DNA from: Cytophagales bacterium
Lineage (GTDB): Bacteria > Bacteroidota > Bacteroidia > Cytophagales > 172606-1
Assembly: GCA_030448185.1 (NCBI GenBank)
Contig: JAUJNL010000019.1
Location: 1 to 64,000 of the forward strand
Direction of reading: 5' to 3'
Length of the DNA stretch: 64,000 bases
The position numbers were made by a program, and so were the translations under genes. Shown one piece after another: positions 3,778 to 14,461 of this stretch; the stretch's first letter is position 1, and each line of letters opens with the position of its first letter. Under the pieces are notes generated by a model, which ran no database searches, had not been told where the DNA came from, and worked only from the letters and a program-made list of their open reading frames with translations.

Positions 3778-4901
3778 TTGATTCCCCGTAAACTGAAAAT
3801 AGGGCTTGATGCCAAATGGTTTTTTGAAGGCCCGGTGAGTAACAGAATTGTTGTTCAGAATCTGATCATCCACCTGATTGGGCAAAATGTTGACCATGAA
3901 CTATTCTTGTTCTTGGATAAAAATCTCAATCAAAACCATTTCCCCTCCAAACCCCTCACGTCCATTTGATATACGTGTGGGCCGGGAATAATTTGTTGTC
4001 AAATTTGTTTGTACTCCCGCCGGAGGCCAGAAAATTAGGACTCGATATCGTTGTTTTCCAGAACTTCGCTTCTTTGGGCAGCCGGTTCAAAAAACTAACG
4101 TATATCTATGATGTGATCTTTCTTTCTAATCCTGAATTCTTTTCCTTGAAGGAAAGACTCTATTTTCGCCACTGAGGGCACTCGCCAGGCAGTCAGACCG
4201 GCTCTGCACGATTTCTGAAGAAGAAAAAAAGCGTTTATTAAAGTATCAATTAAGAGAGATGCTAGTGACATTGACGCAATTCCCCTGGGAGTTGACCCCC
4301 GATTCCAGCCTGCGGATTGCTATGACCAGGCGAGACTAAAGAATTTTCGCCAAAAATACAAGCTTCCGGAACGGTACCTGCTGTATGTAGGCCGTCTCAA
4401 TATCCGGAAAAACATTCTGAATTTACTGAAGGCGCTTCCGTTGCTGCGCGATCAAAACATTCCTCTGGTAATTGTCGGGGCAAAAGACTGGAAGATGCCT
4501 TCCTTCGATGCTATTATTACCGAACATAACCTGACCAACCGGCTCATCTTCACCGGTCATATTCCCGATGAGGATTTGCCCGTTTTTTTGCACTAGCCAC
4601 CCTTTTTTGTTTCCCTTCCTTCGCGGAAGGTTTTGGGCCGCCACCTTTAGAGTCCATGGCTTCCGGGGTACCCGTTGTAGTCTCTGACCGCACTTCGCTG
4701 CCCGAAGTCTGCGGAGAAGCTGGTAATTATGTGAATCCAGATGATCCTTATTCCATTGCCAGCACCATTAATATTCTCCTGGAAGATCAATTACTTTACG
4801 CGCAGAAGCAGGAACTGGGCCTGAAACGGTCCCGGTTATTTACCTGGGATAAATCCGCCCGGAAACTTATGCAAAGCATTTTAGTAACATTGCAATCATA
4901 A
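3778..4901 (+). pseudogene. GT4-type glycosyltransferase (family 1 domain), frameshifted
   Basis: The protein is spread over at least four frame segments. The N-terminus reads KLKIGLDAKWFFEGPVSNRIVVQNL, close to the start of mannosyltransferase-like GT4 enzymes. The middle piece (3966-4175) reads LTYIYDVIFLSNPEFFSLKERL. About 4330-4590 reads ERYLLYVGRLNIRKNILNLLKAL, the hallmark of the donor-binding lobe. The last piece, 4656-4901, starts at SGVPVVVSDRTSLPEVCGEAG, the E-x7-E region. The order is fully collinear with one GT4 protein of about 370 residues, so the breaks look like base indels and not a rearrangement. It probably forms part of the same surface-glycan pathway. Confidence 0.75.
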
Positions 4902-4938
4902 TTGGTCAGACCTGATAATCAGAAATACCAGAAACTGA

Positions 4939-6043
4939 ATGAAAATTGCAATTGCCGGTACTCGTGGCATCCCTAATAACTACAGCGGATTTGAGCAGCT
5001 AGCCGAATATCTCTCAAAAACATTGGTAGAAATGGGGCATGAGGTATACGTATATAACTCCCATAATCACGTGTATCAGGAAAAGCTGTGGAATGGGGTG
5101 CACATTATCCATCAGCACGATCCTGAGTATAAACTAGGTACCTTCGGGCAGTTTATCTACGATTACAATTGTGTAAAAGACAGTCATAAGCGGAATTTTG
5201 ATGTAATTCTGCTGCTAGGGTATACGAGTAGCTCAGTTTGGGGACGGCTGCTGCCTAAAAAGGCCATTATCATTTCCAATATGGATGGGTTGGAATGGAA
5301 GCGTTCCAAATACAGCCGTCCGGTGCAGGAGTTCCTGAAGTTTGCCGAAAAATGGGCCGTACAGACCAGCGACTATCTGGTTGCTGACTCAATAGGTATC
5401 CAAAATTACCTCAAAAACAAATACAAGGTCGAATCAAATTTTATCCCTTACGGAGCTTACCTTTTTACTTCCCCCGATCCGGCCGTTTTGGATGAGTTTA
5501 CACTAGTGCCCTACCAGTATGACATGTTGATGGCCCGGATGGAACCGGAGAATAATATTGATGTTATTTTACAGGGCGTGCAGCAATCGGCGGTTGACCG
5601 TACTTTTCTGGTAATTGGGAATTATAAGAAGAAGTTTGGCTTCTACTTGTACGATAAATTTAAAAGTGAAAGAATCCGTTTTATTGGTGGATTGTTTGAT
5701 ATCAATAAACTGAACCAGATTCGATACTTCTCTAATATTTACTTTCACGGGCACAGCGTAGGGGTACCAACCCTTCGCTGCTTGAAGGCTATGGCCTCAG
5801 TGCCCTAATCTGTGCCCATCAGAATGAATTTAACAGCTCTATTCTGGGAAAAGACGCTTATTATTTTTCGGATAGCCAGGAGGCTAAACACGTGTTGGAA
5901 TCCGTTGATAAACAAAAAGCCGAAGAATCAGCGAAGATAGAGGCTAACATCAAAAGATAGCCAACTTTTATACCTGGGAAAAAGTGAATAGCGATTATGA
6001 GAAAATGATGCGGGAGTGCATTGCTAAAGGCAAACGCATATAA
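4939..6043 (+). pseudogene. DUF1972 / GT4 glycosyltransferase with C-terminal frameshifts
   Basis: The intact part (4939-5808) encodes 289 residues beginning MKIAIAGTRGIPNNYSGFEQ, the signature of the DUF1972 N-terminal lobe found in WcaL/CpsF-like rhamnosyl- or galactosyltransferases. YDMLMARMEPENNI marks the start of the C-terminal GT4 lobe. At about 5765 the frame breaks; one base of shift gives GTNPSLLEAMAS, the expected donor-site loop, continuing to about 5960. A second shift gives ANFYTWEKVNSDYEKM, ending at TAA 6041-6043. The full protein would be about 365 residues, normal for the family. Downstream is the ligase-like gene, consistent with one transcript. Confidence 0.8.
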
Positions 6044-11929: not shown

Positions 11930-12089
11930 AGGTAAGCGGATTAAAATGAATTGACTAGACGAACATTCACTCCGGAAACTAACAAAGAAAATTAAATTCA
12001 ATCGTGGCAAGCCACATCCGGGAAATTTATAGATTATTAATGAGCGTAATTAAATAGGAGGGACAAAAATCCCTTTGGGAGCTAGATAT

Positions 12090-12107
12090 TTTGGCAATAT
12101 TGCCAAA
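12090..12107. promoter_or_regulatory. Perfect 18-bp palindrome, candidate operator upstream of susC
   Basis: TTTGGCAATATTGCCAAA is a perfect inverted repeat lying about 160 bases upstream of the SusC start on the - strand and about 210 bases upstream of the divergent transporter. It has no T-tract, so it is not an intrinsic terminator. Its symmetry fits a dimeric regulator. No regulator gene is adjacent, so the binding protein is unknown. Confidence 0.4.
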
Positions 12108-12314
12108 GCTGACAGTTATGCAAGTAAATGAGGAAATATTTTCTAAAAACTATATAAACGGGTTTTTATAAGGTCTCAAAGGCGTTTTTCTTTGTTGCCG
12201 AAAGGAGGAATGCCGTCCTTAGAAACAGGAAAGCCGTGCGATTTTCAGAGTTGATGCGGGCCGGACAGATACCTGAAAAGGTATTGCTTATACTTGCAGG
12301 GCAACCTCTCATTC

Positions 12315-13381
12315 ATGCGCCAGATTCTGCCGGGATTACTCTTTGCCCTGTTGTGGGCTTCTGCTTCCGTAGCCACTAAGGTTGGCGTTCAGTTTGCTGA
12401 CCCGCTTATACTGGCTAATGTACGTTTTTTGATTGCGGGCAGTGGCATGCTGGTATACGCCTATGCACTGCGGCCCGCTAAGGTTTCCATCCCCCAAGGC
12501 GTCGAATGGCGTCACTTACTCGTATTCGCCCTGCTTAACACCACCCTGTACCTGGGCGCTTTTGTCCTTGCTTTAAAGCAGGTATCGGCGGGTATTGGGA
12601 GCTTATCTACGGCTACCAGTCCGCTATTTATCACCTTGCTGTCGGCAGTCTGGCTTCGGCGTCCCTTACGCTGGCCCGAAGGCTTGGGCATTGGACTAGC
12701 TTTGGCAGGGGTAGCATTAGCCACGTATCCGCTCTTGGGTGCGTTTCAAAATTACTCGCCTTGTAAAAGTGCAAGAATATTATTCTGCAACTGCTAAGGG
12801 CTGAACCCAATTCAGGCAAAATCAGCCATAAAATCGGATCAGATTAATGCAGTATTCGTCCGTTTTACCCTATTATGCCGAAGATAATTTGGGATAAATT
12901 TCGGACCGCGTAATTTTGAAATGCACCCCCGCTCTTACAAAATAGTTATGCTACAGTCGGGGGATTGGTGATTCTGCCGGGAGGAATGGTGTCCGTATCC
13001 GCGGCTACGGTGTACTATGCCCGTATTCCCTGGAAATTGTCGGCGCTGGTGATTAATGGCTGGCAAGTGTTGCTGGGCGGCCTGCTTCTGCTACCAGCTA
13101 CCCTGCTCACGGCAGACTGGCACGCTACTACCTGGAATAGGCAGTTCTGGGCCTCCGTTTTCTGGTTAATTATTCCCGTCTCGGTAGTGGCTTTGCAGCT
13201 ATGGTTTTACCTGGTGCGACAAGATGCGGTACGGGCTTCCCTGTGGCTATTTCTGTGCCCTATTTTTGGGTTTATCTACTCATCTGCTCTGCTGGGAGAG
13301 CCCATTACCGTATTTACTTTTCTGGGAACGGGGCTGGTTTTGGGTGGATTATACCTGGCCCAGCGGGAAAAGTTTAAGTAG
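12315..13381 (+). pseudogene. EamA/DMT-family transporter, split by a MITE insertion
   Basis: The 5' part (to about 12736) begins MRQILPGLLFALLWASASVATK, a classic first EamA membrane segment, with YLGAFVLALKQVSAGIGSL and SPLFITLLSAVWLRRPLRW following. The 3' part (12937-13381) carries the second EamA repeat, including VPVSVVALQLWFYL and SALLGEPITVF. Removing 12737-12928 together with one 8-base duplicate joins the two halves in frame (PLL-QNSYATVGG) and restores about 288 residues, the normal DMT length. A TTG at 12294 could extend the start by 7 residues, but ATG 12315 fits better. The interrupted gene should be non-functional as read: the first half ends after about 26 foreign residues. 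Confidence 0.9.
12737..12928. mobile_element. 192-bp MITE with 22-bp terminal inverted repeats and 8-bp target duplication
   Basis: The element begins GGGTGCGTTTCAAAATTAC and ends with the reverse complement of GGGTGCATTTCAAAATTAC. The inverted repeats extend over 22 bases with two mismatches. It is flanked on both sides by the direct repeat CCGCTCTT (12729-12736 and 12929-12936), a target-site duplication. No coding capacity is visible inside. Precise removal of element plus one duplicate repairs the EamA reading frame. The 8-bp duplication and GGG termini fit families such as ISL3 or IS1595, but no autonomous partner is present in the window, so the family assignment is open. Confidence 0.93.
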
Positions 13382-13713
13382 AGAGAACGTGGGAGCAGGA
13401 GCGTTCTATACCCATTTGACTCTTATCAGAGACCGGGTTTGTTGGTTCTGGCCCTGAACCGGTTGGCGTTAATTTTCCTCTTTTTCAACTTGGCTTTATT
13501 GTCTTTAGAGGAATCGGCCTGCAAGGACGGTCTCCCCAGGGTATAAACCGCAGGTTCAGCATAAAGCTTCTGATCCAGTCGAGTAAGAATTTCGTCGGGT
13601 CCTGGCCCGGTAATCATGTTTGAATATGGCTGGTCTCTAACTGGTAGCTTATCGGTTGGCATACCTTGTCGAGAAAGCAGTCTTGTCAAACTGGCTCTCA
13701 ACCTACTCAAGCC

Positions 13714-14316
13714 ATGAATGACAAGACGATAGCAATATACCGATTTGTTTAAAGAATGGGACGAAAAAACAGCGGCGCATTGTAAACTTTCCGATCAGGT
13801 GCTTTGGTCGCGGCACCATCACTAACTACTGCTTTCAGTATATGCAAGCACACTATGGGATTGATTGACAAATCCGGATTTAATCGTCGATTGCACCGTT
13901 AGAAGCCTTTAGTAGTTATAAACGTTGCCCGTTATGTAAATTCCTTTCCGGTAGCCGTTTGCCGGAATCCAGGTCAAAGGCAAGGGCGCGGATTTGAATA
14001 TTTCTACGGGGTACAACTCATGGTCACCGGGGATAACCAGCCAGTAGACTACTTTATCACTGCCGGTAGTTTCTAGTACTGCTCAGGCTATGCAGTTGGT
14101 CTCCCATGCCGATAGTGCCTATACAGATTACGAGCAGGAAGACTTGTATGCGGAGTGGTGACCAGCATCGCAAAAAGAACTCACTGCGTCCCGACCAACC
14201 CTACGAGAAGTTTCTCAAGAACACCTTCGTAAACCAGTTGAAGCCGTTTTCAGTCAGTAAGAATTTCGTCGGTATTCCTGTTTATCCTGGCCTTTTCCAT
14301 TGCTGTCTGGAGGTAA
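13714..14316 (+). pseudogene. IS982-family transposase remnant
   Basis: Collinear fragments in shifting frames match IS982-type DDE transposases. The start at 13714 reads MNDKTIAIYRF; GLIDKSGFNRRLHR follows at about 13858-13900, then YKRCPLCKFLSG, ADSAYTDYEQEDLYAEW (around the second catalytic Asp), QHRKKNSLRPDQPYEKF, VEAVFS (final Glu region) and FILAFSIAVWR, ending at TAA 14314-14316. At 603 bases it is well short of the roughly 850-900 expected, so internal segments are deleted in addition to several frameshifts. The bases just downstream (about 14340-14375, containing GCAACTTGAATTAAC) resemble an IS982 right end; no matching left end was found. Confidence 0.72.
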
Positions 14317-14461
14317 TCATGTCTGGAGGGTACCTGTTTAGAACCCTGACTAGTACGCAACTTGAATTAACTAAAGATAAATGAATTGGTAAATAGCTAT
14401 CGCATTCCGGATGACGGTTTATTTGGCTTTATTAGGAGCGGCACAAAACAGACTCGGGTAA

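What the first reader, a model, noticed from the sequence alone, without database searches (positions are those of the whole stretch)
12729..12936. Textbook MITE insertion splits a DMT transporter, and exact removal restores its frame
A 192-bp non-coding element with 22-bp inverted repeats (two mismatches) is flanked by perfect 8-bp duplicates CCGCTCTT. Deleting the element plus one duplicate rejoins the EamA protein in frame, giving a normal-length product. This makes the insertion recent and the ancestral state recoverable. The GGGTGC(A/G)TTTCAAAATTAC ends may belong to an undescribed MITE family with an ISL3- or IS1595-like partner.
Basis: seen in the sequence. Interest (0 to 1): 0.72.

Follow-up and report, generated by a model that had tools for sequence, protein, structure and literature searches.

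The report
ISKra4-type MITE splits a transporter gene
A 192-base non-coding element, likely moved by the enzyme of a larger jumping gene (ISKra4 family) that has matching ends in a sister species, sits inside a membrane-transporter gene of an uncultured Cytophagales bacterium; related copies at other sites make it a new example of a known kind of bacterial hitchhiker DNA.

Summary
Observation confirmed. Window 12737-12928 is a 192-bp non-coding element with 22-bp inverted ends (two mismatches) between perfect CCGCTCTT duplicates inside an EamA gene. Without the element and one duplicate the gene reads as 295 aa, colinear with an intact orthologue in a congener. Relatives of nearly the same length sit elsewhere in this genome and in a sister genome, where two identical copies (plus one in another bin) have different 8-bp duplications. 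The partner is not ISL3 or IS1595: the sister genome holds 1.3-kb ISs with matching ends, 8-9 bp duplications (2 of 4 copies) and an ISKra4-type transposase in the two-ORF, -1 arrangement described for the ISMich2 group. No such IS was found in this 75%-complete genome. Beyond the finding, contig C49 carries a 2428-bp unit in which a 189-bp relative and a 96-bp hairpin enclose a thioredoxin-like gene; it has a 9-bp duplication and is absent from the syntenic congener locus. The element's right end also has an untested Bacteroidota-type promoter match facing the second half-gene. New member of a known kind.

The parts
12729..12736 (.). left copy of the 8-bp target duplication, CCGCTCTT
   Evidence: sequence, boundary scan
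12737..12928 (+). 192-bp non-autonomous element (MITE)
12737..12758 (+). left inverted repeat, GGGTGCGTTTCAAAATTACTCG
12907..12928 (-). right inverted repeat (GGGTGCATTTCAAAATTACGCG on the - strand)
12929..12936 (.). right copy of the 8-bp target duplication, CCGCTCTT
   Evidence: sequence, boundary scan
12294..12797 (+). first half of the EamA transporter gene; its last codons and stop lie in the element
12965..13381 (+). second half of the EamA transporter gene (first possible start in frame: TTG 12965)
12888..12918 (+). predicted Bacteroidota-type promoter match TTTG-N19-TAATTTTG facing the second half-gene; untested
   Evidence: consensus from passages of PMC6847099

Best explanation
A 192-bp non-coding element with 22-bp inverted ends and an 8-bp target duplication splits the EamA gene, and it was likely inserted in trans by the transposase of an ISKra4-family (ISMich2-like) insertion sequence, copies of which in a sister genome have matching ends. 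Shown: the anatomy, the other copies, their duplications, the matching ends, the intact orthologue. Inferred: the transposase binds the GGGTGC(G/A)TTTCAAAATTAC ends, excises the element (perhaps as a circle, as reported for IS256, ISLre2 and TnGBS relatives, PMC3942029) and joins it to a staggered target cut that repair fills in as the 8-9 bp duplication. Translation of the first half-gene ends inside the element, so the full-length transporter is likely no longer made.
For: Anatomy beyond chance. Further copies of 189-192 bp: own C49; G001 C10, C11, C12, C18; one in L137. G001 C11 and C18 and L137 are identical but have different perfect 8-bp duplications. 25 of 50 end pairs have exact 8- or 9-bp duplications against 28 of 100000 random placements; without the 8 ISs with other end motifs, 19 of 42. 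G001 ISs of 1289-1315 bp with matching ends, 2 of 4 with exact duplications. Transposase ORF2: best model ISKra4, E 7.2e-48; ORF1/ORF2 in the -1 relation at an A8 run in 3 of 4 G001 copies, as described for the ISMich2 group, with 8- or 9-bp duplications (PMC3942029, passages). Empty orthologues in G001 and G002.
Against: No IS with these ends was found in the window's own genome: of 10 end-like sites at up to 3 mismatches none encloses a transposase, and the 6 own ISKra4-type ISs whose ends I could define have other ends; the assembly is 75% complete. MITE and IS share little beyond about 22 bp. The ISKra4 model score, 163.7 bits, is under the curated cut-off of 205, with ORF2 alone as query. 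24 of 50 end pairs lack any exact 7-10 bp duplication. No movement was observed.
Confidence: 0.87

Rival explanations
1. The element was moved by an ISL3- or IS1595-family transposase.
For: 8-bp duplications and GG-type ends also fit those families (recalled).
Against: ISs with matching ends in G001 encode an ISKra4-type transposase; ISL3 DDE model 13.8 bits against a cut-off of 23, E 0.052; no IS1595 model at E 0.1.
Confidence: 0.04
2. The 192 bp are an old, vertically inherited part of the transporter gene, or a structured RNA, and not an inserted element.
For: The strand folds far better than its shuffles, z -6.2.
Against: The fold is dominated by the terminal inverted repeat; orthologues in G001 and G002 lack the sequence; copies sit at unrelated loci; no Rfam family reaches its gathering score in the window.
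Confidence: 0.01
3. The element is a MITE, but it was moved by another, more distant ISKra4-type IS of the own genome whose transposase accepts these ends.
For: The own genome has several ISKra4-type transposases, some with intact long frames and exact duplications.
Against: Their ends (GGGTGTAAATCAGAATTTCGCT, GGGTGTACGACAAAATGCAGAA, GGGTGTAGGACAAGTTCTGAAA) differ from the MITE ends over most of the inner repeat.
Confidence: 0.08

Closest known systems
ISMich2 group of the ISKra4 family (p-MULT 4 transposases; PMC3942029, passages read)
   Same: Partner IS: ISKra4-type transposase, two ORFs in the -1 relation, 8- or 9-bp duplications, inverted repeats ending in C.
   Different: No reference ISMich2 sequence was compared and no tree was built; the window element itself has no transposase.
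IS982-family MITE of Cardinium (PMC9769881, abstract read)
   Same: A MITE in Bacteroidota (Amoebophilaceae) tied to a parental IS.
   Different: Other IS family; there the parent IS is in the same genome.
TIMEs, Tn3-derived miniature elements (PMC4133298, abstract and one section read)
   Same: Pairs of miniature elements that can mobilise the DNA between them, like the reading given here to the C49 unit; one TIME had weak promoter activity in one orientation.
   Different: Tn3 family, 38-bp ends, 5-6 bp duplications, shown by experiment.

Membership tests
MITE | short, non-coding, terminal inverted repeats, target duplication | tested here: met
   192 bp, 22-bp ends, 8-bp duplication, no open stretch over 35 codons
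MITE | several related copies at different sites | tested here: met
   2 places in the own genome, 4 in G001, 0 in G002; one in L137
MITE | a parental IS with the same ends | tested here: met
   met in the sister genome G001; not found in the own genome
ISKra4 family (partner IS) | ISKra4-family transposase | tested here: inconclusive
   NF033572 is the best model, E 7.2e-48, but 163.7 bits is under the cut-off of 205 with ORF2 alone; one listed homologue is named ISKra4 family transposase
ISKra4 family (partner IS) | 8- or 9-bp duplications | tested here: met
   2 of 4 G001 copies exact (8 and 9 bp), the other 2 none
ISMich2 group (partner IS) | transposase in two ORFs in the -1 relation | tested here: met
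   3 of 4 G001 copies, with an A8 run; the fourth has A6 and one continuous frame there
ISMich2 group (partner IS) | place in the transposase tree | not tested
   no reference ISMich2 sequences were at hand
ISL3 | ISL3-type transposase | tested here: not met
   PF01610 13.8 bits, cut-off 23
IS1595 | IS1595-type transposase | tested here: not met
   no such model among the NCBIfam or Pfam hits at E 0.1

The most novel reading that the evidence does not exclude
ISKra4-type miniature elements remodel genes in Cytophagales: pairs of them carry foreign cargo as composite units (C49), and single ones bring a Bacteroidota-type promoter in their end repeat; in the window the insertion cuts a two-domain transporter exactly between its halves and drives the second half, turning one fused gene back into two half-transporters.
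Probability: 0.1. Interest if true: 0.65.

Novelty: new member of a known kind. Interest (0 to 1): 0.36.

Why it matters
It ties a set of short elements in Bacteroidota genomes to a named transposase family and corrects the likely partner. The end motif with its 8-9 bp duplications is a simple probe for further copies and for gene breaks in metagenome bins that could pass for assembly errors. The C49 unit suggests that pairs of such elements can carry genes.

Tried and rejected
ISL3/IS1595 partner: rejected on the transposase models. Structured RNA: no Rfam match at gathering score; the fold signal follows from the inverted repeat. Sigma-70 promoter scan of 12000-13500: 1 site against 1.7 expected, no support. 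Viral carriage: 0 stretches in viral contigs for the exact motif. Identical copy in L137 (a bin labelled Thermosynechococcaceae): its flank matched none of 3 genus genomes (which had no positive control), so misbinning or transfer stays open. Search of 390 genomes of the order: outside the genus only 21- to 24-bp matches in 2 genomes; at most 2 candidates per genome were scored; not followed up. End-like single sites in the own genome: those on C13, C48 and C119 showed no partner end; the one on C10 was not examined. Rows left out of the 50 pairs: second records of the G001 loci, the C12 copy at a contig end, and two alternative pairings in L087 and L105. Included there: 8 ISKra4-type ISs of this genus with other end motifs, and L013 three times. 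L101 and L125 show shifted near-duplications, and L089, L095, L133, L135 and L136 7 of 8 matching bases; all seven count as 0. One search stopped on a script error after 6 of 12 ISs; one search did the rest.

Full report
WHAT IS THERE. The window lies on contig C180 of a 6.4-Mb, 207-contig, 75%-complete assembly. At 12737-12928 lies a 192-bp segment with 22-bp inverted arms between two CCGCTCTT octamers. Of 1281 identical 8-mer pairs 60-600 bp apart in the window, no other is bounded inside by a 22-bp inverted repeat with 6 or fewer mismatches. No stop-free stretch inside it exceeds 35 codons.

HOST GENE. ORF 12294-12797 holds a first EamA domain and ORF 12965-13381 a second. The flanks joined without the element and one octamer read as 295 aa, colinear with a 305-aa ORF in G002 (both counted from TTG starts, with a shared Met-Arg-Gln a few residues in). 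The G001 orthologue also lacks the element but changes frame about 30 bp upstream of the corresponding site; mutation or sequencing error is open.

COPIES. In the three genomes of the genus, BLAST with the 192 bp finds two places in the own genome, four in G001, none in G002. The G001 C18, C11 and C12 copies and one in record L137 are identical to each other; identity to the window copy in the multiple alignment is 71% (C49), 83% (G001 C10) and 66% (the identical group). C18, C11 and L137 have different perfect octamers, which points to recent movement of that version. The C12 copy ends its contig and has the left flank of C11, so it may be the same insertion. C49 and G001 C10 have no duplication of their own. 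In G001 C18 the element splits another gene: 163 aa as it stands, 344 aa without element and one duplicate.

PARTNER. G001 holds elements of 1289-1315 bp with matching ends: C8 (exact 8-bp duplication), C2 (exact 9-bp), C18 and C1 (none). Upstream of the transposase C8, C2 and C1 end in CAAAACTTCGC and downstream in CAAAATTACGC; C18 has CAAAATTACGC upstream and CAAAACTACGC downstream. The 192-bp elements have the ATTAC form at both ends, except one end of the decayed G001 C10 copy. ORF2 of the C18 copy has ISKra4 (NF033572) as best model, E 7.2e-48 but under the curated cut-off, then ISLre2; Pfam UPF0236 passes its cut-off and the ISL3 DDE model does not. A protein search found 421 relatives at E 1e-3, 120 listed; one Hymenobacter protein is named ISKra4 family transposase. 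In C8, C18 and C2 a short ORF1 precedes ORF2 in the -1 relation at an A8 run; in C1 the run is A6 and the frame is continuous there. PMC3942029 (passages) reports for the ISMich2 group transposases in two ORFs joined by a -1 frameshift, and for these transposase families 18-39 bp inverted repeats with a terminal C and 8- or 9-bp duplications. The own genome has ISKra4-type transposases, but the six ISs whose ends I could define end otherwise.

WIDER FAMILY. An exact scan of the degenerate end motif over genome contigs gave 58 stretches from 17 genome records: 14 named as Bacteroidota groups, 1 Ignavibacteriae, 2 cyanobacterial bins (names sorted by hand). Pairing the ends gives elements mostly of 110-112 bp (Bernardetiaceae bin), mostly 131-132 bp (Hymenobacter), 148 bp (Sphingobacteriales bin), and 1.2-1.3 kb ISs. 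25 of 50 pairs have exact 8- or 9-bp duplications, 1 a 7-bp one and 24 none; random placements in the same loci give 28 of 100000. Without the 8 ISs that have other end motifs it is 19 of 42. Hymenobacter ISs L111 and L139 show ORF1 and ORF2 in the -1 relation at an A9 run; L124 is less clear.

C49 UNIT. Own contig C49:3304-5731 begins with the 189-bp copy and ends with a 96-bp hairpin of the same end type. Neither alone has a duplication, yet the outer flanks share TTGTTAAGA. Between them lie 2143 bp at 37% G+C (46% for the 14-kb stretch). ORF 4172-4840 matches thioredoxin families; the overlapping ORF 4732-5466, in another frame, has no Pfam match above cut-off, and outside the own genome its only match in the 8-genome family search is at 29% identity, in G001. 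That the two ORFs are one broken gene is inferred. In G002 the adaptor gene, a small ORF and the permease gene follow each other without the unit. Reading, inferred: two miniature elements moved as one unit with cargo.

PROMOTER LEAD. The right end reads TTTG-N19-TAATTTTG toward the second EamA half. The consensus TTTG/TANNTTTG is quoted in PMC6847099 (passages), which also says that in Flavobacterium johnsoniae the -33 motif is much less evident and that G is nearly absent from the two N positions; the window end fits that, TAGTTTTG ends do not. Over 40 ends of 20 of the 50 elements, 26 have TAnnTTTG near the end and 4 also a TTG 17-23 bases upstream, all four in 192-bp elements. No function is shown.

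MECHANISM. Likely: an ISKra4-type transposase acts in trans on the MITE ends and inserts it at a staggered 8-bp target, with fill-in repair. Translation of the first half then stops in the element. That the transporter is inactive is inferred.

IN PRINT. Searches for ISKra4 with MITE (4 papers), for two of 'miniature inverted-repeat transposable', Bacteroidetes, ISKra4 (16 papers), and for ISKra4 with non-autonomous (0 papers) listed no title or abstract start that describes an ISKra4-family MITE. The library holds open-licence papers only, and of the listed papers I opened only those named above and in Closest known systems.

VERDICT. A real, well-preserved MITE insertion, with its partner family corrected. 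New member of a known kind.

Noticed in passing
L013:3304-5731 (own genome, C49): 2428-bp unit: 189-bp MITE relative, thioredoxin-like cargo, 96-bp hairpin with the same end type; outer flanks share a 9-bp duplication; absent from the syntenic locus of G002.
   Followed up: partly
L029:2448-3682 (G001, C18): A second gene split by a 192-bp copy; without element and one duplicate its frame goes from 163 to 344 aa.
   Followed up: partly
L031:1657-2808 (G001, C11): A 383-aa ORF that looks like a tyrosine recombinase (by recall) ends inside a 192-bp copy.
   Followed up: no
L137:6126-6317: A copy identical to the G001 ones lies in a bin labelled Thermosynechococcaceae, with its own 8-bp duplication; misbinning or transfer.
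   Followed up: partly
L079:1711-2599 (G001, C11): The G001 EamA orthologue changes frame just upstream of the place where the window copy is split.
   Followed up: no
window 13582-13622 and 14256-14325: Two short direct repeats (17 nt exact, 14 nt at 93%) about 700 bp apart downstream of the transporter, perhaps a decayed duplication.
   Followed up: no
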